From Liolophura sinensis (lineage: Eukaryota > Mollusca > Polyplacophora > Chitonida > Chitonidae): a DNA stretch of 64,000 nucleotides. The stretch's first letter is position 1. Each line of letters opens with the position of its first letter. The notes beneath the pieces are model-generated. The model saw only the letters and a list, made by a program, of their open reading frames with translations. It was not told the DNA's origin and did no database searches. Positions 1-62,330 of the stretch are shown piece by piece. A program made the position numbers and the translations under genes. Location: NCBI RefSeq assembly GCF_032854445.1, contig NC_088302.1, positions 22,517,788-22,581,787 on the forward strand. Reading direction: 5' to 3'.

Positions 1-2496
<2,496 letters not shown>

Positions 2497-17667: not shown

Positions 17668-20600
17668 TTAGTCCAGGCAGATAACTTCTGTAGCACTGTA
17701 TTCAGATGATACTTTTGGCGTCTGGGATTTCAATGTTTCTGTTTTTGATGATGGAGAAAGGTTTTGACAGCTTGCGTTTACGGGTGCCTGGTCATTTCTC
17801 AGAGGTAGTTTGTCTTCATGAATAATGACAGTTGGCTCTAATGGATGACATGGTCCTGATCTTATTTGTCCAGTAGATTCTTTGGGCACTGGTTGAACTG
17901 ATTCACTCTCCGTTATGCCTGCTATCTCTGGTAGTTTGGCTTTCATGATTTCGTCTTTAGCTTTCGTGAAAAACGTTATGGACAACTGGTCGCTGGGACG
18001 TTTTGGGGCATCTGCCTTCTCCTTCAGATCTGCGGGGGAGGCCAATTGTGCAGCAGGGGACGCCGTGGCAAACATCTTGCTGTTTGGAGTTTTCCTACCT
18101 GATGTGTTCATGTTGTCTGTTGTCTCCCGTCTGTTAGGAATGGTCAAGTACTGCCATTCACATGGCACAGGTAGATGACTGAGGTTATACTGCTTAAGAA
18201 TGCTATCATGGACATACCAGCAGATCTTCTTACACAACGAACGCTTCTCTCGAACAGCAATAGCAGCGATCCGAATTTCCGTCTGCCGTTTGGAAATGTT
18301 GCATTCGTCTTTATCGTCATCAACTTTAATGGGCGTTCCGGACACTTCAGCGCAAGAAGTAGGAGGTGCATCCGAAGACCCCTGTGGCACTTCATCCACA
18401 TCCATGTCATCTTCCTTCCCGTCCGATTTTGTTCCCTCTTCGCTGAATGACTGTGAGATTTTCCGTGCCCAGTACACCCTGAATTCCTCAACCAGTCTCT
18501 TAATCCCAAGAGGATTCCCATGAACCAAGCGAATCAGATCAGGCATGGCTGTCAACACACAAATTTGTGAGACACATTTACACATGTAAAATCTAACTGG
18601 ACAAACAGCAACCCACCTATAATTTCATGGATTTTTTTCACCAATTATTAAATCGCCTTGGTGACTGGTTAGTGAAAAATGATGTCAATTTATCCCTGTA
18701 AGTGATTTGTTGTGTCTACGAATTCTTAAAATTATGTTATATCTATGTACTTATGATATAAAGTTACTTGTCAACGCATCAATAAATCAGAGCAAGTCTT
18801 ACATGTATGTAAAGAAATGATTATTTTGGACAGTCTTCCATCAAGATACTTTAGTACCAGCAGATCCTTTTATACTTCAGTAAAAGATTTACCTCAACTT
18901 GTAATAATTTATACACGTACAACAAAAATTTGAACACTTAATTAATACAAGAAGAAGAGGTGAAAAAAAAAAATCAGTTCATGAAGATTTAAAATTTTTC
19001 TTATTAATCAAGGATTTACAAATAATTTTTCAGTGAAGTCTTTAAACCAATATGGAGCATGATATAAAAGGAAGAAAACTCGCACTTTCAAGCTGTTAAA
19101 GGATACATGAAATACTTTGGTAATATTTCTTAATGTGCAGATTATGATGTGTAATAACACATAAGTGCAAACAAATTTTTCAACTACAGCTTTGAGAGGT
19201 AAAGATGGCTTCAAAGTACAGTTTGGCCCCAGTTCGGTCAGTTTGGAAATTTAGTAGCTTGCAGCGGTGGTGTCAACGATGATCCTTGTTTAAAAAGAAC
19301 TCTGAAATGGCCAAATGGGAGCTGGGGTGTGGGAACAGACATAGTGAGTGCTGGTGTAGGGGCGCGCAAAGCTGGCCTGAAGAAGCCATGCACTATCTGT
19401 GTACGTCATCTTGCCCACACTGTAGCAACACGGTTCGGGTCATTTTGGGGGTGTTCACCGAGTTCGAGTTATATCAATGATGAAATAATTTCAGAAATAC
19501 TCTGACCATTGACAGAAAATATGCATTATATAGAGGGGTAATTAACAGGTATAAAAATACTCCCAAAATGAAATTTTTTAAACAAATATTCCGCCGCATA
19601 ATTTTCTTCCTTTGACATAAAAACATAATCCTTGTTTTAGATTTCATTTTCACGTATCCTTTAACCCTCCAGTCTAAGCTACATGCAGTAATATGTTGGA
19701 ATACATACCTTCCTCTGGGACAGGTCTCTTCATTTGTCCCTTGCTGGAGGGTGTGTCCCCCTGTTTGTCAAGCCCTTCCTGGTTAGCCCCTCCCTCCAGC
19801 TTGGCTTTTTCTGCCCTGGTATACGTGGTGGGGATGGGATGGCCAGGGTCATTCAATACCACAGCCTGTGAACACACAACCAGTCAATGCTGTTCTACCT
19901 CCACCTTTTTATTCTGTTTGACATAGACAATTTTATGATTTTTCTGTTTTTAAAGGTTTTCTGATCAAGTGAACACGACTAAGAGTAAAATTGCTGACAA
20001 TGCAGATTTAGAGGATTTGTCAGTTGAACTTTTATACCCTACTCTGACACTGAAAAAAGTCATTCTGTCTGTGAAACAAAACTATGAATTGGAGCGGCCT
20101 AAAGGAGAAACAAAAGACAGAGATTGCCTGTACAACAAAAATATAAATTAGTGTGGCCTAAAGGAGAAACAAAAGACAGATCCCTTATATACTCATTCAG
20201 GCAATATTCTTAAGAAAAAATCACTGAATGGTGTTCACACAAACGAAAAAATTTGACACATTAATATTACACTGAAAATAAGATATTTTCCTTAAACCTT
20301 TGATTTACACTTTTCACTTCTTTTAAGAGAGACTTCGTTTACAGTTGTTAAAAGCCCAAGAGACAAACATTTGTGTGTAGCAGAAGATTCCCATTCTAAG
20401 CATGTGTATTTGAACCGAAGTATTTCTCTAGCCTTCATGATCACCACAGGTGCTAATTTCAGAGCCTTACTTAATGAGATCAAAGACAAAGTCAGTCAAG
20501 ACAGAAAGTGGACTTCCTGGTTTGAAAATTAGACAGTATCTGATAGTAAGTAAAGGATGCCTTTTAAATGCGCAATGCGGGGGTCAGAATGTTTGGTCAT

Positions 20601-23600: not shown

Positions 23601-26600
23601 CCCAAAGTCTGTTATTTATTTATGTGACCCCGGTGTTTTACCCCGTAATCAGGAATCCAAAAGTCGGTTGTTACATTTGATTAGCTTCAAAGCATTACTG
23701 TTTGTAAATCACTCCTGTTCAGACAAAAACAAACTGGATCAGTCCATGAATTTCATGAAATTTACACGCACAGCGAAAATGCGTTGTTTTTACATGTTTC
23801 ACTTCAAGGATGGGAGGTAACCTAATAACAATTGGTTGACATTGCTTTCCATTTGCATTTGAAAGACACACTTTCATTGGATGAATTCATAGGTCATTTC
23901 TGAACTGTCTAAACAGCTCAAGCATGTACTGACAAGGCTTCAAAATCGGAGTCTGCAAATCACATACTAAATGCACCAACATCTCACTAGATATGTCTGG
24001 AGCCTAATAAATCAGGCCATTGTCCATTACCAGAATCCAAATGGATTCCCATACATTCACTTTGTGGAAATTAACCAGAATCTGGTCCCACAGTGCAGAT
24101 ACTCCAGGGGTACATCTAAAACTTGTCATTATTCACATCAAAACACTCCAACGCTCACTTGCCCACAGAGGGTAGAAGTTATGACTCAGATATTCTATAA
24201 TTTTTGGTCATTTTGAAAACTGTTTTGTTGCTTATTGTATGAGAATCCAAGCAGATTCCTGCAGTTTTGGTTTACAGTAGTTATGACAAGAATTGTGTTC
24301 CAAATGAAGAATAAAGCCCACAAAACCACTCACAGAGTCTGTTTTCCATGGATTCCTAGGGGAGATAACTTTGCTCTTCTTTCTCCATGTGCCGTAGTAT
24401 GGTGGTCTGTAGTTGGTGTGGAACTGAAGTAGCTTGACATGATAGGTAACCTTCTTCATTAGCTCAGAGTCATGCTCTTGCTGGACCACATCTTCCTCCT
24501 CACACCTACACAGTCAATAACACAATCTCTCACAGGAATTTCAGGAACAGCAACGTAAGTGTAATGTATGCAAGGGCAACGCATGTATTTTATTTTTTTA
24601 CAATGTAATACGGTGTTTCACAAGTTTAGCATTTTGCAGGTCACACATTTTGTTTGATTGTGACTCACTAATTCACCTTATAGTATGACTTTAGAGTATT
24701 TTGTGAAATCTAATTAATTTCTTACCAGAAAAACTTAAGTGTTAGCATCCGAAAGCATCTTATTAAGGTCTTCATGTGCCTCAAAAAGTGAGTTCTAAAA
24801 CACCAAACTTCAGGTGAAATGCAGTACATACTAACATCTCTGCTCAGCTAACCTCTCTAGTCAAGAGCAGCCAAGATGACAGCCCACTAAGTCCACAGTG
24901 AGCAGCGCTATGTTTTACATAATTACCAGTGGATTTGAAACATTAAATTGGTCATCTTTTCAATCTGAGTAAGAGCTATACTACTTTCAGGAAACTTATG
25001 AATGTATCATTTTCTGCTAAAGAAAGGTGTGGCAGAATACATGTAAATAAGTGAGTGTGAATACATCGTAAATCCAACTGACTTTGAACTCAACATTTAT
25101 TTAGGAGTCTGTTACATAGATTCTTACCCATCGTTATCCCTGCTCCAAGACTTAGGCTGCCTTTCCCCTGTTCTTATCTCCTGCACGTACAGTTAGTGCC
25201 GTCCTAAAAAGACATTTATATGTACTATATTTACTTCATGAAGTTCATATTATTAGCTAATAAGTGAGCATACACTCTTTTGTACTTGAGAACTTTCACT
25301 TACATGTATATACATGTCCCAGGTTCAAGACATACCACCTGATTAAAAGATGTGGCCAAATAAGAAAAACTGGATTTGAACCTTGAACCTGCGGCCCCAT
25401 TAATCAAGGTCTCAAAGATTAGGGAATATTCCTGCAGAAGGCAGAAATAAGTTCCCAAGTGAAGATTTGCACTGACTCAAACACAATATAATTTTAATTA
25501 GATTGAGATCTAAATGTCTTTAAATGTCTTACCTGAGAAGCCAGGTGTTTGTCAAGATTAAGTTTAGACTCCTCAGAGATCTGACAAAAGGTTTGTGGAG
25601 CCAGTTTCATGTCCTTCTTCAGTTCAAATGGCATGAACCTACCAACACTCTGTTCATCATCTACCTATATGAGCATAAGAATGAAGGGTTAGATGTTTAA
25701 ATTGAAAAATATGAAGCTGGTCCAGGAATTTGGAACCATTCAAAATTTTTCGAGAACATATACATGTATCCATAAGTTTTACGGTCGTCTTCAGTTTTGG
25801 GTAAACCCAGAGGATTAGTCATATTTCACCTGAACCCATAAACTTAGTCATATTTGTGACTGAACTCACAAGCTTAGTCATATTCTAAGTGAACCCATAA
25901 GCTTGGTCATATTACGGGTGAACCCTTAAACTTAGTCATATTCCAGTGTCAACCCATACAATGTAAGCCTACTCATATTTCTGGATGATCTCATTAAGCT
26001 GAGTCATATACCTGGTGTACCCATAAGCTTAGTCATTTTCCGGGGGAACGTGCCAGCTTTGCCAGATTTCGGGTGAACCCGTAAGCTTGGATAGATTCTG
26101 GGTGAGCCCATATGCTGAGTAATATTCTGTGTTAACCCATAACATAACTAGGAAAGGAGTTATCTTTTGAATTTACATGTATGCTTACTTAAGTCATACT
26201 TAACAATTTTCCAGTCATATGGCAAAACAATGAGTCCTTAAGTGTGTGTACATATACTGTGTCTTTTTGTGGCGGGACGAGTCAATGCCACTAAACTACT
26301 GCATCAGTCACCGGGTCACATTATCCTGAAAAACATGTCCTGTTTCCTTGTTTTAACAACTCAGTGCTCAGTGCCAAGCCAGGCAGCAACAAGTACTACT
26401 TTATAGTCTTTGGTATGACCCAGCTTTGATCCCAGGCTGCTGAATTGCAAGGCGAACTTCCAACCATTAGACTATCAAATCAGTTGATCTTATGAATAAG
26501 TTAAGAGAGCCATGTTAGAAAAAAATTGGACTGCAGAGCTCAGAGCCTTTACCTTTCGAACCGGAGGAGTAGGTTTGGGTTTGGTGAAGAACCTCTGGAA

Positions 26601-29600
26601 GTTCTCCTGCATCTTTTTCTTCTGTGTAAGCTGAAAAGTAAACACATCTATCAATATTTGCCTTAACCAGCCAAGTAGCTGCACACACACTATGAAGTAG
26701 CCAGATCTGCACTACACATTTCACCCAAGTGATATTATAGGTTGTCCCTACATTATCTGTGATTATCGACTGCCATTGGCTGACCTGACGAGAATTTGGG
26801 ATCGTAAAACATTACATTAATCTGCACAGGGTTTAAAGTTATATATACCCCGTGTGGGCGTTGTCCACAGCTCTGACAAGTTTATGTCAACATGTTACCC
26901 CCTCTAATCAGAGAATGGCAATCAAGAATGATGGATGATTTAGGGATAATTTTAGGAGTGGAAAAAAACAGGGATACCCAGGGTAAACCGACAGACCTTT
27001 CGGCAAGTTACTGAAGAATATTCCCACCTTTGGCATTACAGACTTGCATGCAAAATACTAGTGGTGGAAGACAAGTGGCCTCGAACTTACGTACATGTAT
27101 TACTGCATAAACAGCCTTAAGGGATTGGCTGACCACTTGTCACCAAGACCCCACAAACAGGAAAATTGTACAAATTCTCAAATGAAAACTGCATACCACT
27201 GAAGACATCCATCTGTCATCATTTCTTCCAAAATCAGTTGTTCATTTGAATTAATGAATGAAATGGTTTACCACCACACTGGCAGTTTTTCTGCCATACT
27301 GCAGGCAACTTTTTTACTAATGGACTAATGTTCGATCTACATTACATCTCCTGACGACGCACAATCTCTTGCTGAACAGCACCTACCTTTTCTTCCACCT
27401 CTCTTTGCTTCTCCTCCTCTTTCTGCCGTTTTTCCTCTTCAATAAGCCTCTTCTCTTCATCCTTCCTTTTCTTCTCCTCTTGTTTAGCACTGAAATTGTT
27501 TCAACAACTTCTGGTACAAGTCTAGGATGTGCTAATTCATTTATTTGATTAGCATTTTTACTCCGTCTTCAAGAATATTTCACTTCTACAACAGCAGCCA
27601 GCATTATGGCAGGAGAAAATCCGGCAGAGCCCAGGGGAAACCCACGACCATCTGAACGTCAATGGCAGACCTTCCCCCGTACGGCCAGAGAAGAAGCCAG
27701 CATGAGCTGGACTTGAACTCCTGGGTCATTACGCTGCGCTGGCGTACTAACCCATGGGGCCACAGAGGCCCCGAATTCTAGGATGTAGGTCACATTTTTA
27801 CGCTACTGTACGATATAGACAGTAACAGATGGCTGAATCTCTTTAAAAAAGCCTATCTCATTTAATTTAAAAAGGCCCCAACCCAGGCTAAGCAGTGTAA
27901 ATGGCTTTTGTCAAGTGTACATTTACCCTTGACCATTAAGTATGCGTTGGATTATAGCTCGTCTTACTCTAGGAGTTCCTGCTTCTTCTTTCTCTCTTCT
28001 TCCTTTTGTTGCTGCTTCTCCAGTTTTTCTTTCTCGAGCTGTTCTCTCCTCAACTGTTTCTCTTGCTCCTTTAGGGCACGTTCTTTTTCTTTCTTGTCCT
28101 AGGCAATAAACGTTGCAACATGTTGAGCGACTGAAGTCCTGATTTTTAAAACACTCCTCACATGAAAACTTCCAACATTTTTTTTCTTCCTTTCACAATT
28201 ATTGGTGTATGTGCACTCATAAAACACCCATAAGAAAACTGGCATGTTATATCATATACAAAAGATGAGCTAACGTTAAAAGCTCGGTGTTAGAACCTCC
28301 ACAAAATAAAAATGTTCAAAGAAAGATCTCTGTACCAAGTAACTTTCAGCCATCACTTGAGTGAGCCATCACCTGAGTGAGCCATCACCTGAGTGAGCCA
28401 TCACCTAAGTGAGACATCACCTGAGTGAGCCATCACCTGAGTGAGCCATCACCTAAGTCAGCCATCACCTAAGTGAGACATCACCTGAGTGAGACATCAC
28501 CTGAGTGAGCCATCACCTAAGTCAGCCATCACCTAAGTGAGACATCACCTGAGTGAGCCATCACCTAAGTCAGCCATCACCAGAGTGAGACATCACCTAA
28601 GCCAGCCATCACCTAAGTGATCCATCACCTGAGTGAGCCATCACCTGAGTGAGACATCACCTAAGTGAGCCATCACCTAAGTGAGCCATCACCTGAGTGA
28701 GCCATCACCTGAGTGAGCCATCACCTGAGTGAGCCATCACCTAAGTCAGCCATCACCTAAGTCAGCCATCACCTGTGAATATTGTCTTAGAACAAAGAGA
28801 AAGAGTTGAACCTGACTCCTGTTATGGCTAGCTGCATAAATTATCATCAAATATCTAGATCAAAGCCTACCTTTTCTTCTTTCCTGAGACGTTCCTTTTC
28901 AGCCTTGGCCTCTTCCTTAAGCCTCTTTTTCTCTCGCAATTCCCTTTCCTTTTCTTCCTTTCGTTTCTGTCTTTGTGCTTCTCTCTCAGCTTTCTTTGCT
29001 GAGCTCACCTAGATATTGACATATATTCATACTTGTTTCATGCTATTTTAAAGCCTGTCCATAAGGTGAACATTATCAAAAATATTTGTTAGTGTTTAAT
29101 AAAATTTCTAGAGCTTTTCTTACCTGTCCAGGGCCAAATGCAGCGTTTGTTTTTTTAACAGTGAAGTTAGATTTATCAGGCAATATTCCAGTGGTATGGA
29201 CTTGATGAAGTTTTGAACTTGTGACAAGGAAAAGTTGGATTTCACTGTGTTTTGTGGAGCTCCACATCTCAACCTTGTTAAAAAAACCTGTTACATGTTT
29301 ATTGTTGCAGAACCATTTCACCTTCTTTAGGCAAGACCTGCAGTAATTCCACTGACTAACTTCAATAAGAATATCAGCTATCAGTTATTCACGATCACTT
29401 GAGCTGTAACTGTGAAACTAACATCACCAGTACCAATATTAGGGTAAACAGGGGACACTACTTTCATTCATCAATGAGGTTCAAGATACAGCACCGTATG
29501 CTTCCCTTTGAGCCACATTGAAGATGTACATAATACGGCAAATTGCTCTCTGGCATTTATGATAGGCTGACGAGCAAACATTCTACGGTTCTTAAGCTGT

Positions 29601-34030: not shown

Positions 34031-34159
34031 TGGATCAGATTTCTGTGAAGCCAACACGGCTCCGATCGACGAAAAAGAAGCCAAAATACGGATACTCAGT
34101 TAATTTCAGAAATTTTCCCTCCTTCGGAAATATACAAATAGTTGCATTACTCTTTGTAG

Positions 34160-34170
34160 TTGGCGCGAAA
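34160..34170 (-). promoter_or_regulatory. E2F-like site
   Basis: TTGGCGCGAAA, close to the E2F consensus TTTSSCGC read on the minus strand. It is 130 bp upstream of the CHAF1A start codon. A second, weaker site, TCGCGCAAAA, lies at 34181-34190. Confidence 0.6.
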
Positions 34171-49400: not shown

Positions 49401-52400
49401 CACAAGTTGGTAGAGATTTCTCTCTGACCAGAGAATACATCTACGTGTCAAGACATTACATCATAGAGGCCCCAGCTGGCATTCTCAGTGACCTAGACAT
49501 CTACATGTACTTTGCTGTCGACTTCAGCTATTAAAACATCACATAGGGAGCTACATGTCCAGTGTAAATTTATAGAGCTTGGCCTAAGGAAATTTTAAGT
49601 GTAAGTGAATCATTACGTGTAGCTATTCTGTTTTGCTGATTGGGGCTGTGATTTATTGTACATGTAACTTCTGTTCACAGTCATGCTTGTACAATATATA
49701 TGAGTGTCTTAAGTGTGCTGCAATTATTATCAACTACGTGTAATATCTACATGTATTTATGTTTTATTGCTCGTGGAAAATGTAGTAATGTTACAGTCTA
49801 CCAGGAGATGATTATAGGGCCACCAGAGAATCTTCCAACAACGTGTTTTAAAGCATGGTTTAACGCGAACAATAAACTGAGGAAAGAGTTCAGATGTCTT
49901 CAGATGTCTTAACCTTGCCAAGATAATAAATAAAAAATCACTGAGTATTTGGCAACACTGATTCCGAATCAGCTTTTGGATTTTGCCTATCTTTGTAATG
50001 CTTTGAGATTTGGTCAAAATCTTTTTTGACCATAGTCACGTAATTTCAACAGGCTGTAACTCGAGAACTAGAATTGAGACTTGCCCCAAATTGTAGCCCC
50101 AGTCATGTAGTTTCTGGTGCATGCCAACAGATTTGAGCTATAGTGTATCGTTTTTTCGCTAGAAATATTTAAATGACACCACCCTACTTAAAAAATAGAA
50201 ATGTAAGCCCGTGCATTTAACATAGACTTTGGAGATAACTGTGCATTAGTATACATGTGCTGCAGGTAACCTGCCCCATAGATCATCCATCTGTCACTCA
50301 AACTGAGAAATGAACAACTATCCCTCCTATTGACAGCTATCAACACACAATTTTCAGTGTTTGCGCGTAAAGCCAGCACTATTCGCAGTGCATCATGGGT
50401 AATTCTCAACAATCCCGACGGCATTCTCCCATACACCCATGCTATCAGGAGTAGAATTCCAAAGACATGGCGAAATATACCTAAAATGTCCATCCACACA
50501 TGACAACCCCAAAACATGTTACTCTTACTCGGCCGAACTCAACCGTTAAAGAATATTGCGCTTTCCAGTTTCTATTCAGTTCTAGACCTTACGTGCCCAT
50601 AAGGAAGAGACAGGCTTTAGGATGCCACACAGAAAACCGTAGGCCATGGCTTTGGACTGAGGGTCTTTTATAAAAACAACAACACACAACTCTGCTTATT
50701 CCTTCGAACTGTTTGGACCAAAATTTCATATTTATTGTCTCCTAACATTTCCTGTCGCCTACATGCACTCTGCCCTCATCCACTTTGAAAATTGAACTGA
50801 GCCCAGGCAAACCAGATGGGAGGCTAGAGTGAGGTAATTGCACGCCATGTGTCAAAAAACCTGAAATGTACATTGTCAGCCAGGAGCGGTGATCACCAAG
50901 GCCTGACTCGATCAAGACGCCGTGTGGTTGTTTTCAGTACCAGACGCATTGTATATGTTATTTGGTTATTTGGGGTTCAAACCCAGTTGATTATTTTTCA
51001 TTTTTATCATGCTTTTTCTCCATGTGGCCTGTTTTGTAAATACTTTTTCAATTTGTACATGCAGGTTGAATGTGTTGAACTTTCCATTGTCGAAGTACTT
51101 CAGCAGTTGAATAAAGCTATTCGTCGTTATGTGTGTTAGCATCTGTTGGTAAACAGATGTTTTCCAAGGCGTAATTTTTCCATTCGCGGCAAATTAGTTC
51201 AGTGCATTACTTTCATAGTGTTTTCTAATTTGACATTCGATTGGACCTTGATGCTTGGCCACTGGTATTGCTGTAAGGAAAGTAACAACTTTAATTATCG
51301 TTTGTTTTTATTTTTGCAGTATATGAGTGAAAAGATCGGTGGTGCTAAAGGGACAGAGCTTGATGATGAATTCATTGAAATGGAAAGGGTAAGTTACAGT
51401 ATCCTAAATAGATGCATGAAATGACGTGAAATAGGAGCTTTGGTCAAAGTCATCAAGCACCTACATTTTTTACTAAAGTACATGTGGCAGGCTCAGTGCA
51501 GGTACATGTAGCTGGCAGCCTCATTTCAATGAAATTTCTGATAGTAATGACATTTGTGATCTAAAAATATTTATCATTGAAGCTTATTTCACATCATTAA
51601 ACTCATTCACCTGTTTGACATTTAAATACTGCGTATGTTGAGAGTTGTTTCATTTATCTGTGTTTAAATACATATACTTGTAGGACATCGAGCATTTGCG
51701 TGCAAGATAATTGCTGTTAGCTTGCTTATTTTATGGTCTGTCAAGTTCTTTTACCACAGACATGGCATTTCATGATGATTCACATGTTCATGTACATTAA
51801 GCTGTGCTCAGTCTCAGTTGACTTGAACATTTCCTCTCAAAACATTCCACTTCCTGGAACAAAACATGTGGAGCCTTTTAGAAGATTTCCTACATTGCAA
51901 AAAAAAAAAAATGTTCTTCCTTATCAATGTTCAGAAGAATTGAGACTTCCTTCAAGAAACAGGGAAGGAAAAAAAGACTGATAAAAAGGAGTTAATGCAG
52001 ATGTACATGTAATTGTGGTCTGAGTGGTACGTTAGTCCGTCAGTCCTTGGCTCAGTGCATGCTCATGATTCTATGTCTGCCTGTGGTTCAGTAACACCAT
52101 TAAACCCCTCAGGAAGAGCAGTGTGGGTTCTGGTGGCCATTACTCTAAATCAAGGCAGATGTTGAAAATCTGATTTATATTAGGCCAATTTTTCTAGGCA
52201 CAGATTTTGTGGGGGCTTAGGGAAAAACATCTAGTTCTTGTGCAATGAACATTTCACTCGGGGTCATCCGGCTAGTGTATAGGGTCACCCAGAAACATTT
52301 GTTAAGGAAATTCAGAAGATTGAATTGGTTCAGTTCAGTCATACGTCCATCATCCATATGCATACATGTACATGTAGTCATTACATCACACTTACCATGA

Positions 52401-55400
52401 ATAGTACATTCACATGGTATTTATGAAGTTTTTTTTTTTATTTTCTTGATTGTTGTTTTAATAATATTATACTAGTACTCAAGAATTTTTCCCGATGATG
52501 ACATGGTTTTATGGGTGGAGGAAACCAGAGTATCTGGAGGTAAACCACCAACCTTTGGCAAGTTGCTGACGAACTTTTCCACTTGTGACATCGAGATATG
52601 CACATCATATTGGTCAGATGGGACTATTTCGACAAACATTTGACTGCACAATCTTACAAGCGCTGAGAGGGAGAGACATTAAGGTGCGATGCACTTTCAT
52701 TGAAGTTTTCCAAGAAATTGATACATGCACATATATAAATGTATCTAAGGATTTTTTTTTTCTTACATTTTTTGTCATATCCATGTTTTGACCCAGGCTA
52801 GTGGTCATGACAGAATGTTTTCTGAAACCATGCGACAGTTGTGGATTAAGAAGTGAAACATTCATCGAAAAATATGGATAAATAAATGAAATGGCTGTAC
52901 CCTGAATACACAAAGCCTGACGCTGAGCTGGTTGTATAATACAAACATGTAGTACAGCTCCATGTACTCCTTCGTTCTGTTCACCTGGCTCCGTCCTGTC
53001 CCACCCCCAACCCTGTATAATCTGTCTCTGTCTGATGTAATACCGTGAGGGGGCAGATCCGTGGGTATTGATTGAGCCCCATGACGAAGGTTGCGTGGGC
53101 TTCTCACCATAGGCCAGCATTTCAGTGGGATAGCCATATTGTTTTTCTCCTCTAAATCAATTAGTCTCTGAGTGTGTATTTGTAAACCGCCCATCAACAT
53201 GGGTTGAAGAAAGAGAAAGGAGAGCTCAGTGAGGAAATACACTTGTCTATTTGCTTATAGTAATAATATTGATTATATTAAATTGGAGAGGGAGCCATGG
53301 CCGAGGGTCTTTCAGTGGCTAGAGCACAAGAGGTGGGGGTTCGACCCTAGTCTTGAACAGGATTGTAGATATCCCCCTTTCCCTCCTTTTATTGTTTGTT
53401 TGGGTCTGGGTCAAAAAGGGCATGTACATTGTACTAGACTGCTGACTACAGCTATCCCAGTAGCCGTCTACTTTGGATATTCTGACCATTTAAACCAATA
53501 GTAACTGTGAAAGAATCACTTTCAATTCAGCTGCCTACTTTTAAGCTCTGGTCTCCTTCTCTAATTCAAAATGAAAACCCTGTTTGCACAGTCAAACACT
53601 TGTCTTCCATAATTATTTTTTCATATGTAGGAAAATTTGTGATTAGCTCGCCAAAGGTTGGCACTCAGGTGTACTCCATCCATAAAACTGACTGTAGTCT
53701 TGTAAGTAAAAATGTCTTGAGTATGCCATTAAACAATAATTAAAATAAATAAATAAAATACATGTAAAATAATTGCCCTAGGCTTTGACCAGTCAAACTT
53801 GCTTTGACTGTGTCAGCAGCATCTATACAGCAGGAAATTTGCCAGTCCCCTGAAGAGATAGCCATGCTTACTTCTGCACTATTTGTTTCCACCATTTACA
53901 AAACTGACCATGGTCATACAGTGCACATACCTAAATGACCTAAAATTTTGCCCACTAAAGTGTATTTTAAGAGAGACAAACAAATGTCACGAGATATCAT
54001 TTTTGTGCTGAAAATTTTCTAGTAGAATATCATCCAGTGTTCCAAGCAAACCTCACAACATCTTTCTAACCTCAATAGAACTCTCAGAATCAGGAATAAT
54101 GGGCAAGTTAGTCATGGACGAAATTTTTGGTCACTTAGGGTATTTGATGTATTCTTGAGTAGTTTTAAGCAAACTTTAAACAAAGATTTTTGGGAAGTGA
54201 AATTTAAAATTACATGTACCATTTTCGTGGGCGTCAAATACATGTGTTCCAGTTACCCCCTTGTGTGCTCTTAACAAGCGCTCATTCTATCTGCCCATTA
54301 TTTCTAAGTTTTTGGATTCTTGGACACAAAACTCCACAGATTGGATTGGCCAAATTCAAGCTCCACAAAAAGTATGATTTCATCAGTCTACATAGACTAA
54401 TGCCTACAGAATATGCTTGAGAAAACACCTTGCAAACATGCGAACAGGTTGTAGAATTATGGTATAAGCATCGGTCAGGACTACAGCTACATGTACCTTT
54501 TCATGCTTGTGTGAAATTGTGTACACATGTACATGTACATCTGTTATTAGGATTGCACGTCGTCACTAAAATTCCTCAAAATATGCCTAATTATCTCATC
54601 AGCGATCCACTTTCTTTGTGTTTATTTCAAGACAAATTTTACTTTTTAAAATTCTGGTGGAACTATTTTCTCTAGCTTTTTGTGTATCTTTAGAAATTCT
54701 CTGAATATTAAATTTATCTCATTGACTGCAAGTATATTGACATTTTAAAATTTTTTTCTGTTTCATTTTTACATGTAGGCATGGTTTACAGCTAAATTCT
54801 ACGCTGTATGCATGATGATCTTGTGTTATTTGAAGGATAAAACAAAATGAAATTTTAGTTCTATTTTTTCACCTGCACCATACGTGTACATGTACACGTA
54901 TCGTATTCTAAACATTTGCATGTAAATGTACACAATCAAATGTACAAATATCAGCCTTGATTTTTATGAGGCTCTGCATTTTAAAGCTCCATGTAAATTC
55001 TAATGTGGTACATCTTTTCGGTAAATGTTGATTATGTAGCATGGTTAATTGGCAATATTCCAAGACAAGCAAATTGATACATGCCATACATGTCCTTGTA
55101 TATATATATATATATGATACTATTACAATTCCAATGTTTTCAGAAAACAGATGTTATGGGAAAGCTTGTGGATGAGGTTATGATAAAAACACATGAATTT
55201 CTTCAGCCAAATCCAGGTAAGTTTGTGTAACTAATCAAGCTAAAGTGTTACCTGGATCGGCTTAATTATGTTCGATTCCATGACATTAACATATAACATG
55301 CACATCTGCTTAGCATTTACATGCATGTTTTATGCATCTGTATATTAATTGTTGTCAAGAAAATTTTCTTTGATAAAATTTAAAAATGCCAGTTTAATTA

Positions 55401-58400
55401 TGAGGATGCAAATGACCTCCCTGTAAACTGCTTGTATTTTGTTACTTTAGTTATTGGTTCCTCAATGTTTGGAAAGTTAAACTGCAGGCATTCATACAGT
55501 CACAATCTACTCACAGAATTCAGTGAATTGGATATCTCAACAAGAAGGGGTTCACTTGTGTAAAAGAATTAGAAAAGAAACATTTTCTAATGTCAGTTTC
55601 ATTACTCTTTCCATGCCAGCTAAACCATTCAAATTTGTATCTAGAATGTTTTTACCCCAATGAAGCCATCTGCCTTCATTTTATTGAAAAATTGTGTACG
55701 GTGCAAAACATAAGTTAAATAAACATGTTAAATGGGGAGACAAAACTGTTTATTTTTTTCTGTTCACAGCTTCCAGAGCCAAATTGGTGGCCGTCAATTC
55801 AATATCCAAGCTTAGAGGTCAGTCCAAGCACACCATGTACCCCCAGCCAGAGGGGACTCTTGGGGAAACCATGCTCAAGTACGGCAAGGAGTTGGGCGAG
55901 GAAACACCATTTGGTAAGAATCGGGGTACAAAGTTGAAAAAACTTAAAAAACATTGATATAATTTGAATATATTGGTCTGTTTTTTCTGCACGTACCCTA
56001 GCTGTTCTGGTATCAATCAGAAATACAGTATATTAAGTTTTCTCCACCAGCGTCCCAATGGAAAAGAATAGAAGTGGCAAAAGATGCCTGAATCGAAAAT
56101 GTGCATGCATGCATAAAGGATAGTGTTTGCAATATTAACACACAAGCATCACAAGAGAGATAAAAGCTGTCAAAGTTTTGTCGTGGAAAAGGTGCTAGGA
56201 TTTTATTACCAGTGGTCCTGGGCTCTCTAATTCTCCTCTAGTTCTTCAAAAACTGATTTTGACTTCATTATAGGCCGTATGAAGACCCATTTTTTTGGTA
56301 AACCATCCAAACACAATTCTTTTTTTAAATAATTCAACAACGAAATCCTTGTTATTTTTTCCCTTAACCTCCACCTCTGCAGATGTTGATTTCACCCAAA
56401 TCACAGTCGATCAGTTTAAAGCATTCTGATGACCATTCGTTGCCATACTCTGTAATGGTCACATTTGCACGGTGGCCAGCAGATAATTCTCTGTAGGCTG
56501 AAATGATTACAGAGGAACTTGCAACAAGTTTCCAGTGATGGCAGTATTTCATGTCCATTCTACAAAGAACCTTCATGTAGACTCATCGTACATGGATCAT
56601 GGCTGGCTCTTGTAACCATCCTGAGAGTGCCACATGTATATACGTGTATACATGTACAGTATGTCTGTCCATCCCACGTCAAGGGTTGGTGAACAAAATT
56701 AGTGCATCACTCAATATATAATCAAGTAATTTGGAGAGATGCAGAATTTCATACAAATGTCTCCAATCACAGACTTGAAGGTTTCAGAAAGTATCATGTT
56801 GAGTTGCATTTTGTAAAATTTCTTTATCTTCAGACACAATGGTTTGGGTTCAGAATTTTTAATTAGTTTGACATGCATGTTTACCATTTCTTATTTTTGT
56901 AAATATATGTGGCGTACTTATATGATTTCATACAATAGTGCCCCTAAGCTGGATGAGGAAGGACCGAAGCGACTTTTTGCCTGCACACACATGTACAAAC
57001 TGCAGTATATTGCAGATAAAGTTTCATTTGCAATACTACATTATAGCTAAATGTTGAAATACCCTTCCACAATGTGATGTACATCAGCATCCATTTCCAT
57101 ATGTGCATGCTATAAAAATACTGTGGCAAGTGTTGAACCGACACATGCATGTTCACACGACCATGTACACATGTACAGTGTAAGTCATCTCCAAGCATCA
57201 TTGATCAGCCCAGAGCGTCCTGTAAGCCTTGGGCCATAATTTGCAGTGCAAACTTGATATATATATACAAGTACCCCTCTGGTGGGGGGGGGGGGGGGGT
57301 GTCATGTGGCAGTAGTCAGGGGTGAGGGGTCACTTCCTGGTCTGCTGGGTATAGGTAGTGCCAATTAATCATGTGAGTGCCGGGATATCTACTTGTGTGT
57401 ATACATGTACTTGTACAGAAGGTTGGGTTAATTCTAAAGGACACTAAAATGTCTAAGTGGAAATGAGTGGATTTCGATGTTTTGAGAGAGGACTAAAAGC
57501 TTGCATGGTCAATCTTTGAAGCATATCAACCAACAGTGCTTGCCTTTCAAACTCTGTCCTGAGAGACTCCAGAAGAGGTGTATTTGTTGAGCATGATATT
57601 GAATAACATGTAAACCTACTGCTGGTATATATACTGCATACACATGTATATATCTTTCCTGTCGCCTTGGAATGTTATGCTGTTTGCTTGCAGAAATTGT
57701 CCGGAACATCAAAGGCATAATTCCATATACTATCATTGTGCAAATACAGCTTTCTATAATGGACACCACCTTAGCCTTACATCCTTCAAGTTAATTCTGT
57801 GGTAAATCCCAGCAACGCACTGTTACATCAAAATACATGTAGAATAGATGAGATCTTTGTTTTTTTGTTTGTTTTTGTTTTTTTTTTTTTTTGCTCTGAT
57901 CCTTACATTCAATGAATGGATGCATTGGAATTTATAAAGCCTGTGAAATCGGTTTCTCACTGCACTGGTTGTTGAATGGGTATTCTGATTCAAAAGGTTT
58001 GGGGGTTTTATTGTGACAGAATAAATTTGTAACTTATTTTGTCTGGTGATTCATGTAAGTGTACATATATATGTTTGAGACAGATTATATGCATATACAT
58101 GTGCACAACTGATATAATCACATCCTGAGTTGAAGCTATGTATAGAATATAATTTTTTTTTAAATTTCACAATTAAAAAATTAAGGGGTAATTAATTTAA
58201 TTAACAACACTCACATTTGCCATAAAGAGTATAATTATGGTGTTTTATGGACATTTATAGTGTTTTTCTACAGATAATTGGATTCAGCAGCTGTCATCTA
58301 ATACTGACAATAAACTGCTGCTCTTTTTGTGGAAAACAGGTGTTTATGACATGCCAGAGCACTCTCCATGCTCCCATTAATCCTGCTTGTCATCATGGCT

Positions 58401-61400
58401 CAGTCTGCACTGAAAACCAAGTCTTTTTGCCTGAAATGCCTTCAGCTGTATGGGATATTGCTGGACAGATATAGATAGTGTTTTCAAGAAACTTTGCAGA
58501 AGCTTGTAACTGCAATTCCATATTTTAGAACTACAAGTATAACAAAAATTTGATTTATTTATTTTGTTTGATTTGTGTTTTACGCCATACTCAAGAATAA
58601 TACATTTACATGGCGGCAGGAAACCAGGTAGCACAATTTAAACAAAACCCCTCATTATGTGGTGATTATTTAAGTTATTTTAACTGCCAACATTAAGACG
58701 TTAGTAGTTGGTGTGGACCTACAGCATGCATGTAGGTCTTAGACATGCACCTGTGGATTTTAGTTACATGTGATCACTTCAAATTCTGCCTTGAAAGGTT
58801 GTGTGTAGATTGGCACTTAAATGCAGTGTGAAGACTCTGTTGATTTGTTATTTGATTTGTGTTTCACACCATACTGAAGAATATTTCACTTATACGACTG
58901 CGGCCAGCATTATGGTGGGAGGAAACAGGGCAGAACCCGGGGAAAACCCACTACCATCTGGCAGACCTTCCCACTTATGGGCGGAGAGGAAGCCAGCATG
59001 AGCAGGATGAAGGCTCTAACATCCACAGGTAAATACATGAAGCTGGGTACAAGTGTTGCCTGGAGTGACAGCCATGACATAAAGGGCATGATATTCCCAC
59101 GAGACAAATCAAGGTTGAGTGTGGGACGTCTATTGCTAGAAATGACCAGTTACTATATAAAGCAGGCTTGCATGGTGTAATATTGATTAGGTATTCTGAA
59201 GGCATCATATACGGGCACACCTCCATGGTGGCTGTATTTCCATAGTGCCTGGTGAACCCTCTGTTCTATGTATATGTATAGTATGGCAGCTTGTCCTGTA
59301 TGCCAGGGTGCATGTGTTTATCTGGCCAGTGTTGAAGTTATCTGCACTCGATTGCGATCTCCGTTGAGACCCATGAAGTCATTTGTTATGCAGTATATCA
59401 TTGATGCGTTAGGATGGTGTGGAAGTAAGAGTCTCCCAGCTCTCCACAGTCTTGAGCGGGTGTAATAGCTATCAGTTGGCATCTAGCATTTATGCCTAAA
59501 ATGTCTGAGTATTAAAACATGGTACATGCCTCCACTGAAGAGGCAGGTTCAAGCCGGAAAGAAGTCAATTTGTACCAGTTAGTTATTTATTTATTTGAAT
59601 TGTGTTTTAAGTCATACTCTAGAGTATTTCACTTCCACGTGTACAACAGCAGCCGTCATTATGGTGAGAGGAAACTGGGGAAACCCACAACCATCCACAA
59701 TTGTTGGAAGACCTACTCGTGTGGCCAGAGAGGAAGCCAGCATGAACTAAACTTGAATTCTCAGTGACTGCTTTAGTGAGAGGCTCCTGGGTTTTTGTGG
59801 TGCGCATTCAACCTCAATTTTGAATTCAATTCTTTTTCAAGGGTCTACAGTTACGAGTGCTTTCTCCACTACTTAACGACAGTACAGCATTACAATAAAG
59901 GCTGATACATTGTAACCTGGTAGGCATTGCGCTACAATCCATTTTTGATGTAACAATGACTCATTGTCCTTGGGGGCTGTTTCTCAAAACCAAATTGGTC
60001 TATGGGTATTGGACCAAATTGGCCTGTGGTTGTTGGACCAAAGTGGCCTGTGGGTATTGGACCAAATTGGTCTATGGGTATTGGACCTAATTGGCCTATG
60101 GGTATTGGACCAAATTAGTCTATGGGTATTGGACCAAATTGGTCTATAGGTATTGGACCTAATTGGCCTATGGGTATTGGACCAAATTGGTCTATGGGTA
60201 TTGGACCAAATTGGTCTATGGGTATTGAACCTAATTGGCCTGTGGCTATTGGACCAAATTGGCCAATGGGTATTGGACCAAATTGGCCAATGAGTATTGC
60301 TGTAGCAATGGGTATCCATCTGTTTCTTGTAGGTTCTTGAGCCTGTGTGTCTACTATCTTTTAAAAATCCTGTTAGTAATTTTCAGTATAAATTTATCAA
60401 GTCTTGCCCAAAGGCAGATTCATTAATATAAACCTGGATTTAACATGGCTTTATTTTCAGGCCCAGAAGCTAGGTTTGCATGTTAACTATGTGGATGTTT
60501 ACCTGTATTTTACCTTCATTGATAACCATAATGATAAAGAACATCAACTATAATGACAAAGTCAGTTTTAAGCTCTCTCTAACATTAATGCTGATTTCTG
60601 TGCTATTTGTTTTCTACAGGCTCTAGTCTGGTTGAAGCTGGAGAGGCATTCAAACAGCTGGGAGAATCCAAGTATGCCCTTGAATTTGCCGTCAAGCAGA
60701 ACTTCCTTGATCCTCTTGACCAGTTACAAAACAAGGATTTAAAGGAAGTAAACGTAAGTGCTTGAGACATGAGCTGAGGTTCCAGAACCCTTCACAGCTC
60801 ACGACTTTTGGACTGGTAATTGTAAACAAGTGAAGATTTTTCTTGGATGAAGTGTTGAGTGGGTGTTGCTTGTATATGTCTTGGTGTAATGATATGTACA
60901 TTTAAGTACATTGTAATCAGTTCATTGGTTTAGAATTTCTTTATGGCAGTCGGATTTACTCCTTTGCTTTATAAATTGTAATTGAAGTACTAATAAGTGG
61001 CAAGATGCCAAATGCCTTAAAAATGCTAATCTTTGTTAGCAATCTCCTTTGTTAATGCATAAAAATGAAATGGTGTCGGACAGGCTTATATGTTTTTAAG
61101 ACGTGAATTTCGGCGTACCGCTGACAAATGATGAGAGGTCTAATTGGTGTGTTTGTGCCGCCATGGAAAATTGCAGGGTGTTTTTTTCCCCACCCTGCTT
61201 CCCCCATCACTCGTGAACATAACGGCTGTCATACATGTTAATAATTTGTGGGATTGGTATAAAAGTTAAACTCAAATATTTGAATTAAATGTTATAATTG
61301 AATTGTAACGTATAAGTTGAGTGTTTGACTCCAAATGATATTCAAGCAAAATCTGCATGTACCCTCTTGCAGTAACTTTAAAGCATACATGAACGGCTTG

Positions 61401-62330
61401 AGATTTTTCTTTATATGGAGTATGTGATATGGCCTAACATATGAAAGCACAAAAGGCTTTTCTGCTTTACTCTTGTGGCTTCAAAAATGGCTTTAAAGTA
61501 CAGTTTTCCTAAGGTCCCAACGGTCAGTCGAGAAATTAAGAGTAGCCTGCTATGGTGATTAATGTCAAAGGTGATAGTTATCAAAACAAGTTTATTTAGG
61601 AGAGAGCCAGTATTAGGGGCACAGTTCCAGTATATTCATCGATGATGACGTTTCCAAATATTTCCGACCATTGACTTAAAATATGCATAAAATGGAGGGG
61701 TTATTAAGAAATATAAAACATGCCTAAATTAAAGAAAAAAATTTATCTCATTTCTGTGGCACATCTATTTTAATTTTCCGTAAAACCGTACGCTCTGTTT
61801 TATAATACCTTTTACCTCATGCATCCTTCAAATGTTGAAAGTGTGCTGTAACTATGAGTTCTGTATGATGACAATTGTGTATTGCTGTGTCAGTCACATG
61901 TACTGCTGTGTCAGTCACATGTACTGCTGTGTCAGTCACATGTATTGCTGTGTCAGTCGCATGTATTGCTGTGTCAGTCACATATGTTGCTGTGCCAGTC
62001 ACATGTGTTGCTGTGTCAGTCACATGTGTTGCTGTGTCAGTGGCGTGCTGTATGACTAGGATGTGAGTTACACATACAATCTTGCCTACATGTATGTAGT
62101 TCTGGTGTCCTCTTGCTAAACGAATTACAAAACATGTAACATCAAAGACAGGTGTCATGTTTTATTGTGATCACATAAGTCATGTTGTGAAAAACAGAAT
62201 TCTTTCTATTTGCATAAGGATGAAGATGTGAATTGTATGTTCTTGCGGTTTTCTGTTCTTCAGCATCATAGGAAGAAACTCTCTGGCAGGAGACTGGACT
62301 ATGATTGTAAACGTAGGAAGAAAGAAAAAG
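34496..62330 (+). CDS. SH3GL1: Endophilin-A (SH3GL family), N-terminal BAR part, six exons (partial)
   Basis: Exons: 34496-34540, 51320-51388, 55144-55216, 55770-55913, 60620-60753, 62264-62330; the gene continues right of the window. Phases match, giving 177 codons plus one base. Endophilin-A bends membranes in endocytosis through an N-BAR domain and recruits dynamin and synaptojanin through a C-terminal SH3 domain, not reached here. The amphipathic H0 helix MSFAGLKKQFNKANQ keeps Phe10. Then come SEKIGGAKGTELDDEFIEME, THEFLQPNPASRAKL, YPQPEGTLGETMLKYGKELG, VKQNFLDPLDQLQNKDLKEV and HHRKKLSGRRLDYDCKRRKK, matching vertebrate SH3GL1-3. Invertebrates normally have one A-type gene, so the symbol is by synteny with CHAF1A. 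Intron 1 uses a GC donor and spans 16.8 kb; the other visible introns are GT-AG. Confidence 0.95.
34541..34546 (+). other. GC splice donor of endophilin intron 1
   Basis: CAG|GCAAGT follows codon 15. Using GC joins exon 2 in frame (Q|YMSEKIGG). The nearby GT at 34545 would shift the frame into an early stop. The rest of the site matches the strong GC-AG consensus. Confidence 0.85.
36240..36470 (+). repeat. Dispersed repeat R3, copy 1
   Basis: 'atttgccccaaatagtgtacttttagg ... cagtagaactccagaatcaggagaaataaggg' parallels copies at 43430-43625 and 53935-54150. Confidence 0.6.
36530..36662 (+). repeat. Local duplication, copy 1
   Basis: 'aggtaattctcac...cttcagcattgtgcactggagaacagtgaagtagcatt' is repeated at 37168-37303 with scattered changes. 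Confidence 0.75.
37168..37303 (+). repeat. Local duplication, copy 2
   Basis: Second copy of the segment at 36530-36662: 'gaggtaattctcattaaa...cttcagcattttgtactgaggaacagtgaagtagcatt...agtacaagcag'. Confidence 0.75.
37555..37776 (+). mobile_element. MITE-A copy 3
   Basis: Starts GCTAATTCCTCAACCTT and ends AAAAAGTTGAAGAATTACAGTA. The interior has 'aaaaagtataattttatcagtccacacagaataatgcctt'. It is a full-length reference copy of about 220 bp. Confidence 0.85.
40355..40759 (+). mobile_element. Internally deleted Tc1/mariner-like element
   Basis: The left end CAGTGCAACAAAAGTAAGTT (40355) and right end AACTTACTGTTGTTGCACTG (to 40759) are near-perfect inverted repeats of about 24 bp. TA precedes the left end. 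Only the last third of a transposase remains inside, so most of the coding region has been deleted. An MITE-A copy follows 26 bp later. Confidence 0.88.
40383..40544 (+). pseudogene. Tc1/mariner transposase C-terminal remnant
   Basis: The frame reads NPIEHL, then a TGA (40401-40403) where family members have Trp, then DQLKQSVSRRGG, LDDFKRHLQEEWLAIL and RLINTMRVR before a stop. The phrase around NPIEHLW marks the end of the DDE catalytic domain of Tc1-like transposases. The nonsense codon and missing N-terminal two thirds make it inactive. Confidence 0.88.
40785..41005 (+). mobile_element. MITE-A copy 4
   Basis: From ACCCAAATTCTCAACCTTTT to AAAGGTTGAAAAATTACAGTA, with the interior 'gacaagactacattggttggattggccagtttcagggcttcacaaaaag'. 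Confidence 0.85.
43191..43404 (+). mobile_element. MITE-A copy 5
   Basis: From 'cctttattcctacaacctttttt' to 'aaaaggttgaagtattacagt', with the shared core 'ggcttcacaaaaagtataattttatcggtctacacagaataatgccttc'. Confidence 0.85.
43430..43625 (+). repeat. Dispersed repeat R3, copy 2
   Basis: Contains 'ccaaacaaaccttaaaacaccg' and 'agctcagtagaactttataaagaatggggcc ... atggatggaattttgggtca', parallel to 36240 and 53935. It directly follows an MITE-A copy. Confidence 0.55.
44537..44555 (+). repeat. Poly-G run
   Basis: Thirteen G, one A, five G. It is unstable and possibly four-stranded; an assembly length error is possible. Confidence 0.8.
45385..45413 (+). mobile_element. SINE-1 tail fragment
   Basis: 'gcgcatcgtaaaacaccaatgaaac' matches the SINE-1 3' end. 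Confidence 0.5.
46190..46395 (+). mobile_element. MITE-A copy 6
   Basis: From 'acccaaattcctcaactttttc' to 'tttacatttacagta', with the core 'agagcttcacaaaaagtataattttgtcagtctacacag'. Confidence 0.8.
46989..47160 (-). mobile_element. MITE-A copy 7, inverted
   Basis: Begins GACTGTAATTCTTCAACCTTTT and contains the inverted core 'ctgtgtagaatgacaaaattacactttttgtgaagcc'. The far end is eroded. Confidence 0.8.
47458..47673 (+). mobile_element. SINE-1 copy
   Basis: 'gacccaggagcctctcaccaatgcggtcgctgtgagttcaagtccagctcatgctggc' through 'gtgaaatattcttgagtacagtgtaaaacatctatcacataaataaataaa'. It has a clear B box and complete tail. It lies in endophilin intron 1. Confidence 0.88.
47946..48162 (+). mobile_element. 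MITE-A-like element, diverged
   Basis: Ends are 'actgtaaaccttcaaccttttc' and 'gaaaatgttgaagagttaggta', similar inverted ends. The interior differs from other copies, so this is probably a subfamily. Confidence 0.5.
52495..52612 (+). repeat. Dispersed repeat R2, copy 2
   Basis: 'tatgggtggaggaaaccagagtatctggaggtaaaccaccaacctttggcaagttgctgacg', related to 26935-27050. It lies in endophilin intron 2. Confidence 0.65.
53287..53362 (+). mobile_element. tRNA-derived SINE head (second family)
   Basis: 'ggagccatggccgagggtctttcagtggctagagcacaag' followed by 'gggggttcgaccctagtcttga' contains A-box- and B-box-like sequence (GGTTCGACCC). It is not a foldable intact tRNA gene. A tail-like piece, 'cttgagtatgccattaaacaataattaaaataaataaata', lies at 53715-53760 and may be its 3' end. 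Confidence 0.7.
53935..54150 (+). repeat. Dispersed repeat R3, copy 3
   Basis: 'aaattttgcccactaaagtgtattttaag ... ccaagcaaacctcacaac ... tcaatagaactctcagaatcaggaataatggg', parallel to 36240 and 43430. Confidence 0.6.
54270..54463 (+). mobile_element. MITE-A copy, left end eroded
   Basis: Core 'ggattggccaaattcaagctccacaaaaagtatgatttcatcagtctacatag' and right end 'gcgaacaggttgtagaattatggta'. It follows R3 copy 3 as copy 5 precedes R3 copy 2. Confidence 0.75.
57284..57299 (+). repeat. Poly-G run of about 16
   Basis: An uninterrupted G homopolymer in endophilin intron 4. Length is probably polymorphic or uncertain in assembly. Confidence 0.8.
58555..58625 (-). mobile_element. SINE-1 tail fragment, inverted
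   Basis: 'atttattttgtttgatttgtgttttacgccatactcaagaata' and 'ggcggcaggaaacc' are the inverted tail and part of the body. Confidence 0.7.
58845..59000 (-). mobile_element. SINE-1, inverted
   Basis: 'gtgtttcacaccatactgaagaatatttcactt', 'ggccagcattatggtgggaggaaac', 'ggcagaccttcccacttatgggcggagaggaagccagcatgagc'. The tRNA head is lost. Confidence 0.85.
59583..59795 (-). mobile_element. SINE-1, inverted
   Basis: Full body from 'atttatttatttgaattgtgttttaagtcatactc' to 'gaagccagcatgaactaaacttgaattctcag' and 'gtgagaggctcctggg'. Three inverted SINE-1 copies cluster within 1.2 kb here. Confidence 0.85.
59992..60300. repeat. 24-bp minisatellite, about 13 units
   Basis: Unit 'ttggtctatgggtattggacc' plus AAA or TAA. 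Alternating variants (ccaaattggtcta and cctaattggccta) suggest a higher-order unit. Stop-free frames on both strands come from the eight-codon period. It lies 320 bp upstream of endophilin exon 5. Confidence 0.9.
61381..61828. mobile_element. MITE-C relative, diverged
   Basis: Ends 'aagcatacatgaac' and 'catgcatcctt', and shares interior text with 19100-19660: 'cgaccattgacttaaaatatgcataaaatggaggggttatta'. Shorter (448 bp) and more decayed. Confidence 0.65.
61883..62050. repeat. 21-bp minisatellite, 8 units
   Basis: Unit 'tgctgtgtcagtcacatgtat', with more changes in the later units. It lies in endophilin intron 5, about 210 bp before exon 6. Long stop-free frames across it follow from the 21-bp period. 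Confidence 0.9.

What the first reader, a model, noticed from the sequence alone, without database searches (positions are those of the whole stretch)
17668..62330. CHAF1A and endophilin-A head-to-head: an apparently ancient bidirectional pair
The two start codons are 466 bp apart on opposite strands. To my knowledge human CHAF1A and SH3GL1 are also divergent neighbours at 19p13.3. Shared orientation in a lophotrochozoan and a vertebrate implies descent from the bilaterian ancestor. One gene is a replication-fork histone chaperone and the other an endocytic membrane bender, so retention is more likely through shared promoter or enhancer DNA than shared function.
Basis: partly seen in the sequence, partly recalled or inferred. 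Interest (0 to 1): 0.8.

Follow-up and report, generated by a model that had tools for sequence, protein, structure and literature searches.

The report
Ancient CHAF1A–endophilin divergent gene pair
In a chiton, the genes for a DNA-packaging protein and a membrane-bending protein sit back to back across what looks like one shared promoter region, beside genes whose relatives are also neighbours in mammals, so the arrangement is probably inherited from the common ancestor of molluscs and vertebrates.

Summary
CHAF1A (minus strand; start codon 34028-34030, stop 17668-17670) and the only endophilin-A gene found (plus strand, from 34496) are separated by 465 bp. The endophilin gene runs past the window to 73754. 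The genome matches the chiton Liolophura japonica: 632 scaffolds, and a 58,388,612-bp scaffold identical in length to published scaffold_4.

First, both start codons lie in one CpG-rich island (33676-34850), the longest in the surrounding CpG-poor 81 kb. That suggests one open promoter region, with an E2F-like palindrome on the CHAF1A side and a CRE on the endophilin side. Second, the order here is FEM1B(-) CLN6(+) CHAF1A(-) endophilin(+) DET1(-). CLN6 and FEM1B are listed side by side in cattle and pig, CHAF1A and SH3GL1 in cattle, and 4 of 6 further families tried lie on the same chiton chromosome.

Bilaterian ancestry is well supported, from two lineages. Retention by promoter sharing is plausible but unproven. 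Mammalian orientation and the human spacing of about 2 kb are recalled, not tested. This is a new member of a known kind: ancient bidirectional pairs.

The parts
17668..34030 (-). CHAF1A (CAF-1 p150) gene, start codon 34028-34030, stop codon 17668-17670
   Evidence: tblastn exons with a recalled human probe, Pfam, PDB match, start and stop checked
33994..34030 (-). CHAF1A exon 1, coding part, donor GTAAGA, phase 1
   Evidence: frame continues into exon 2 and then into the exon that begins at 31352 (read)
33285..33350 (-). CHAF1A exon 2
   Evidence: acceptor TTTCAG and donor GTGAGT flank an open frame ending KRMKQ (read)
26553..26630 (-). probable CHAF1A exon with PCNA-binding box QENFQRFF (edges read by eye)
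   Evidence: sequence and translation; compared with KAEITRFF quoted in PMC9570017
24334..24441 (-). CHAF1A dimerisation-domain exon (tblastn limits)
   Evidence: Pfam CAF1A_dimeriz, tblastn
34031..34495 (.). 465-bp spacer between the two start codons; only its own match in the genome
33676..34850 (.). CpG-rich island (o/e 0.98, 44 CpG) covering both start codons, in a domain with o/e 0.38; its 34200-34299 stretch has no CpG
34160..34169 (.). E2F-like palindrome TTGGCGCGAA, 130 bp upstream of the CHAF1A start codon
   Evidence: mean 0.004 per shuffled spacer, 0.002 per 465 bp locally; seen by eye first, one of 17 patterns tried
34368..34375 (.). full CRE TGACGTCA, about 120 bp upstream of the endophilin start codon
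   Evidence: mean 0.011 per shuffled spacer, 0.015 locally; seen by eye first, one of 17 patterns tried
34496..64000 (+). endophilin-A (SH3GL) gene; runs on to 73754 outside the window; intron 1 is 16.8 kb
34496..34540 (+). endophilin exon 1, coding part (MSFAGLKKQFNKANQ), probable GC-AG donor CAG|GCAAGT
51320..51388 (+). endophilin exon 2
60619..60750 (+). endophilin BAR exon (tblastn limits)
   Evidence: Pfam BAR in G000 at the same place, tblastn
1..1177 (-). FEM1B, single long ORF (first in-frame ATG 1175-1177), continues to -727 outside the window
   Evidence: tblastn 54% to FEM1B against 36% to FEM1A, recalled human probes; ankyrin repeats; ATG
4913..10040 (+). CLN6, six matching stretches (first coding exon not found)
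   Evidence: Pfam CLN6 E 4.8e-28 for the last exon; tblastn with a recalled human probe

Best explanation
CHAF1A and the endophilin-A gene are an ancestral bilaterian head-to-head pair. In the chiton both genes start inside one roughly 1.2-kb CpG-rich island, read as one unmethylated, open promoter region with two back-to-back core promoters. CHAF1A-side transcription is probably tuned by an E2F site (S-phase demand) and endophilin-side transcription by a CRE, so the genes share open chromatin but need not be co-expressed. Because a break or insertion inside the island would damage at least one broadly needed gene, this adjacency is lost less often than others. Shown: gene identities, orientation, spacing, island, motif positions, neighbours and chromosome context in the chiton. 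Inferred: methylation state, transcription starts, function of the motifs, and the selective reason for retention. Recalled: orientation in mammals.
For: Gene models and spacing. CpG island 33676-34850, o/e 0.98 against 0.38 for the 81-kb domain that I delimited from the profile; 6 of 1596 windows of its length reach its level and all 6 overlap it. E2F-like palindrome and CRE. CHAF1A is listed in Table 1 of a paper on RB-E2F target genes, and SH3GL1 has 0 occurrences in its main text (PMC9090780, passages). Precedent: the CDT2-INTS7 spacer, 246 bp in human, drives reporters both ways but responds to E2F1 only towards the replication gene (PMC2194621, abstract and passages). Ancestry: the cattle list has CHAF1A next to SH3GL1, with FEM1A further along (PMC7668599); human CHAF1A and SH3GL1 share one 248-kb amplification peak (PMC2873534); CLN6 is listed next to FEM1B in cattle and pig; the chiton order is FEM1B, CLN6, CHAF1A, endophilin, DET1; TLE_N, PINIT, CHD1-like_C and PUB matches are all on the same chromosome, 4 of 6 families tried, P 0.0011.
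Against: No transcript or methylation data. SAD_SRA matches lie on C6 and C1, and the RAMA match on C4, not on C8. The island has a 100-bp stretch without CpG in the middle of the spacer (34200-34299), so it could be two abutting promoters. CpG-rich stretches are common outside the depleted domain (o/e 0.79 to the left; 1.7% of 2436 windows of 465 bp in the 244 kb reach the spacer's o/e of 1.2), so the island stands out only against its own domain. The E2F and CRE patterns were noticed by eye before the test (note) and 17 patterns were tried, so their rarity is not proof of function. Human start-site spacing is about 2 kb as recalled. As recalled, fly and nematode orthologues are not adjacent. 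Only one invertebrate was examined.
Confidence: 0.6

Rival explanations
1. Inertia: the pair is ancestral but kept only because this chromosome region rearranges slowly; the short spacer and island are two ordinary promoters that happen to be close.
For: Families from the matching mammalian regions stay on this chromosome, 4 of 6 tried, and other neighbours of the pair also have relatives in those regions, so a slow lineage alone could keep the adjacency.
Against: Of the four chiton adjacencies, the two found again in mammalian lists are the divergent ones, CLN6/FEM1B and CHAF1A/SH3GL1; CLN6 and CHAF1A are on different cattle chromosomes and the listed neighbour of cattle SH3GL1 is STAP2, not DET1. 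But this is 1 chance in 6, it is not shown that the tail-to-tail adjacencies were ancestral, and loss of duplicates confounds it. Published counts report few ancestral blocks of three or more genes in the vertebrate ancestor (PMC8851819, passages) and loss of most of 372 ancestral bidirectional promoters (PMC6292497, passages), so retention there is not the default.
Confidence: 0.3
2. Regulatory-block retention: distal enhancers of one gene sit in the introns of the other, for example in the 16.8-kb intron 1 of endophilin, so the genes cannot be separated.
For: A super-enhancer table in an oral cancer study lists chr19 4,367,944-4,403,867 (reads aligned to hg38) as in SH3GL1 and upstream for CHAF1A (PMC9409227, passages). 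Long first intron in the chiton with smaller CpG-rich patches at 37376, 40251, 50301 and 50901.
Against: Neither gene is a developmental regulator of the usual target type (general knowledge); no chromatin data for the chiton; the intron patches could be unmethylated repeats.
Confidence: 0.13
3. Convergence: the two genes became head-to-head neighbours independently in molluscs and vertebrates.
For: Only two lineages could be compared.
Against: Surrounding genes and chromosome content match as well.
Confidence: 0.03

Closest known systems
CDT2(DTL)-INTS7 divergent pair (PMC2194621; abstract and passages seen)
   Same: Replication gene head-to-head with an unrelated gene; short spacer; E2F sites beside the replication gene
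   Different: Conservation reported there is among mammals and reporter evidence exists; here mollusc and mammal are compared and there are no functional data
Ancestral bidirectional promoters of chordates (amphioxus study PMC6292497, 372 putative cases; passages seen)
   Same: Ancient 5'-to-5' neighbours, enriched there in housekeeping functions
   Different: Whether CHAF1A-SH3GL is in that set could not be checked; the majority of that set was lost in vertebrates, while this pair is listed as adjacent in cattle
Ancient metazoan microsyntenic pairs (Irimia et al. 2012, PMC3514665; not held, seen only as a citation)
   Same: Neighbouring genes kept across phyla, explained by cis-regulatory constraint according to its title

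Membership tests
CAF-1 p150 (CHAF1A) | CAF1A dimerisation domain, p60-binding C-terminal region, PCNA-binding box | tested here: met
   QENFQRFF box read by eye
Endophilin-A (SH3GL1/2/3) | N-terminal BAR with endophilin-A-type sequence plus C-terminal SH3 | tested here: met
   two stretches (human SH3GL2 residues 170-202 and 244-284) not resolved
Bidirectional gene pair | divergent genes less than 1 kb apart | tested here: met
   start codons 465 bp apart; by start codon only
Bidirectional gene pair | transcription of both genes from the spacer | not testable with these tools
   no transcript data; a CpG island over both starts is indirect support
Ancient bilaterian microsynteny | orthologues adjacent in distant phyla | tested here: met
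   chiton and the gene list of a cattle region (PMC7668599); two lineages only
Ancient bilaterian microsynteny | same relative orientation in both | tested here: inconclusive
   chiton orientation shown; mammalian head-to-head orientation recalled, consistent with PMC9409227
Ancient bilaterian microsynteny | present in other mollusc, annelid, echinoderm and amphioxus genomes | not testable with these tools
   no other animal genomes in the collections offered

The most novel reading that the evidence does not exclude
The window preserves a bilaterian block of alternating divergent pairs, [FEM1B/CLN6] and [CHAF1A/endophilin], of which mammals kept the two head-to-head adjacencies and lost the tail-to-tail ones; CHAF1A/endophilin would then be a bidirectional promoter that passed through two vertebrate genome duplications, and the block a natural test that 5'-to-5' sharing, not slow rearrangement, holds genes together. 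(Lowered from 0.35 in the draft: on recheck, the ancestry of the tail-to-tail adjacencies and the mammalian orientations were not shown by any search.)
Probability: 0.3. Interest if true: 0.6.

Novelty: new member of a known kind. Interest (0 to 1): 0.4.

Why it matters
Why unrelated neighbouring genes stay together for more than 500 million years is debated: shared promoters, distant enhancers, or mere inertia. A compact pair of two broadly needed genes, each found once here, with separable motif candidates and with convergent neighbours that can serve as controls, is a clean case for testing these against each other.

Tried and rejected
Prior description. CHAF1A with SH3GL1 and 'bidirectional' gave 0 papers. 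Of 13 papers holding at least two of CHAF1A, SH3GL1 and UBXN6, 7 hold both CHAF1A and SH3GL1; I read passages of three of these 7 and saw the other four in the listing only. Endophilin plus chromatin assembly factor plus microsynteny gave 0. CHAF1A plus E2F plus head-to-head gave 1 unrelated paper (listing only). General searches on ancient microsynteny and bidirectional promoters gave 44 papers, 25 listed, and 31, 15 listed; I read passages of four of those listed and the abstract and passages of a fifth. Two of them, PMC2871058 and PMC3815023, do not contain CHAF1 or SH3GL in their main text. The library holds only open-licence papers and supplementary tables could not be read, so this does not show absence from print.

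Paralogon search: none of the 10 papers listed of 26 looked, by title and abstract start, like one on the 19p13.3/15q correspondence, and I read none; that correspondence is recalled.

CAF-1 p60 as an unlinked control rang nowhere, control genomes included, so it was dropped as uninformative and is not in the 4 of 6 count. PUB may include NGLY1 as well as UBXN6; I did not tell them apart. Assignment of families to human regions is recalled, except PIAS1 (cattle and pig lists).

Neighbour search was partial. I printed 131 coding-like open frames of the flanks but sent only selected pieces to Pfam. The intervals 10040-17668 and 73754-82727 and the endophilin introns were not scanned for further genes, so adjacency there means that no gene was recognised.

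CLN6's first coding exon was not found, so the FEM1B-CLN6 spacing is unknown. Structure prediction was not run.

Full report
Source. The window is G000:C8:22517788-22581787 in a 609,464,459-base genome of 632 contigs. The chiton Liolophura japonica assembly is reported as 609.5 Mb in 632 scaffolds, with scaffold_4 of 58,388,612 bp (PMC11068029, passages), and C8 has exactly that length. I take the window to be from this chiton, a mollusc.

Observation. The start codons are at 34028-34030 (minus) and 34496-34498 (plus), with a 465-bp spacer. CHAF1A is supported by Pfam and PDB matches. Its short first exon is joined to the rest by consistent frames, read by eye: exon 1 ends in phase 1 before GTAAGA, exon 2 ends in phase 1 before GTGAGT, and exon 3 opens into GRLAFKPL. 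Endophilin-A is supported by BAR and SH3 matches and by a far better PDB match to endophilin-A1 than to endophilin-B1. The gene continues to 73754, beyond the window. No second endophilin-A or CAF-1 p150 was found; of 24 matches to the endophilin query, 6 are at this locus and 18 elsewhere at 28-59% identity over the SH3 part.

Promoter region. The spacer matches only itself in the genome. The domain from 1551 to 82500, whose limits I set after seeing the profile, is CpG-depleted (o/e 0.38). Within it 33676-34850 has o/e 0.98 and 44 CpGs; it is the longest of 13 such islands, and the 6 of 1596 windows of its length that reach its level all overlap it. Against the whole 244 kb the spacer is less exceptional: 1.7% of 2436 windows of 465 bp have its o/e of 1.2 or more, since the left flank is CpG-rich (o/e 0.79). 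The stretch 34200-34299 has no CpG, so two abutting promoters remain possible. If gene bodies are methylated here, as in other molluscs (recalled), the island reads as an unmethylated promoter region over both starts. Of 17 motif patterns tried, the E2F-like palindrome at 34160 (mean 0.004 per shuffled spacer) and the full CRE at 34368 (0.011) are present and rare; a shorter E2F pattern overlapping the first has 0.053; CCAAT at 34214 and TTTGAA at 34269 are at chance level; NRF1, SP1, YY1, full ETS, E-box, TATA, ZNF143 and AP1 patterns are absent. Both main motifs had been noticed by eye before the test. The E2F site lies on the CHAF1A side and the CRE on the endophilin side. CHAF1A is listed in Table 1 of a paper on RB-E2F targets and SH3GL1 does not occur in its main text (PMC9090780, passages). 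The CDT2-INTS7 pair gives a tested precedent for a shared spacer that E2F1 drives in one direction only (PMC2194621, abstract and passages).

Neighbourhood. Extending 90 kb to each side showed FEM1B (minus, 54% identity against 36% for FEM1A), CLN6 (plus, six matching stretches), and DET1 (minus, 82727-85336; Pfam E 3.6e-159). Further right an HNRNPK-like gene at about 129-142 kb is suggested by eye only; the two pieces sent to Pfam matched nothing. Further left lie repeated alpha-L-fucosidase-like genes. The intervals between the named genes were not scanned fully. Cattle chromosome 7 is listed with FEM1A, then after several genes CHAF1A, SH3GL1, STAP2, MPND (PMC7668599, passage). In human, CHAF1A and SH3GL1 are named together for one 248-kb amplification peak at 19p13.3 (PMC2873534, passage). 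Cattle and pig lists give PIAS1, CALML4, CLN6, FEM1B, ITGA11 (PMC9052698 and PMC9593086, passages). So the chiton genes correspond to two mammalian regions (human 15q and 19p13.3, recalled), as expected if one ancestral block was duplicated and thinned in vertebrates.

Chromosome-scale check. Six families were taken from those human regions and related ones (locations recalled). The matches of TLE_N (4), PINIT (1), CHD1-like_C (1) and PUB (2) all lie on C8; those of SAD_SRA (4, on C1 and C6) and RAMA (1, on C4) do not. C8 is 9.6% of the genome; 4 or more of 6 has probability 0.0011 by chance. The last two families were chosen after the first four were known. A seventh search, for CAF-1 p60, found nothing anywhere and is not counted.

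Why kept. Four chiton adjacencies join FEM1B, CLN6, CHAF1A, endophilin and DET1, two divergent and two convergent. The two found again in mammalian lists are the divergent ones; CLN6 and CHAF1A are on different cattle chromosomes, and STAP2, not DET1, is listed beside cattle SH3GL1. This fits retention through shared 5' DNA, but the odds are only 1 in 6, the convergent adjacencies are not shown to be ancestral, DET1 was not compared with SH3GL2 or SH3GL3, and loss of duplicates is a confounder. [quoted passage not shown] Against a strict shared-promoter reading, the human starts are about 2 kb apart as I recall, and a human super-enhancer region is listed in SH3GL1 and upstream for CHAF1A (PMC9409227, passages), so longer-range sharing is possible.

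Verdict. The pair is real and most likely ancestral to bilaterians. A shared promoter island in the chiton is indicated. The reason for its retention remains open. It belongs to a known class, ancient bidirectional pairs; whether it has been listed before could not be checked.

Noticed in passing
window 1-10040 and upstream to -727: FEM1B and CLN6 are a second divergent pair, whose relatives are listed side by side in cattle and pig.
   Followed up: partly
window 34535-34546: Endophilin intron 1 seems to use a GC donor (CAG|GCAAGT); by my reading the nearby GT donor would put exon 2 out of frame into a stop.
   Followed up: partly
window about 26553-26630: The chiton CAF-1 PCNA box reads QENFQRFF, with Q where human and mouse have K (KAEITRFF, PMC9570017, passages), although that paper stresses the lysine.
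   Followed up: no
extended coordinates -90000 to 82500: CpG landscape changes near FEM1B: o/e 0.79 to the left, 0.38 to the right, as if an unmethylated domain meets a methylated one.
   Followed up: no
extended coordinates about -88000 to -43000 (L015-L019): Repeated alpha-L-fucosidase-like segments in a row, several nearly identical by eye; one piece confirmed by Pfam.
   Followed up: no
extended coordinates 91350-91625 (L004): Weak match, below cut-off, to the Mos1 transposase HTH domain, perhaps a mariner remnant.
   Followed up: no
G000:C8:39386100-39386417: A 28% match covering endophilin residues 174-279 of the query in one open frame, on the same chromosome; possibly an endophilin-B or other SH3 gene.
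   Followed up: no
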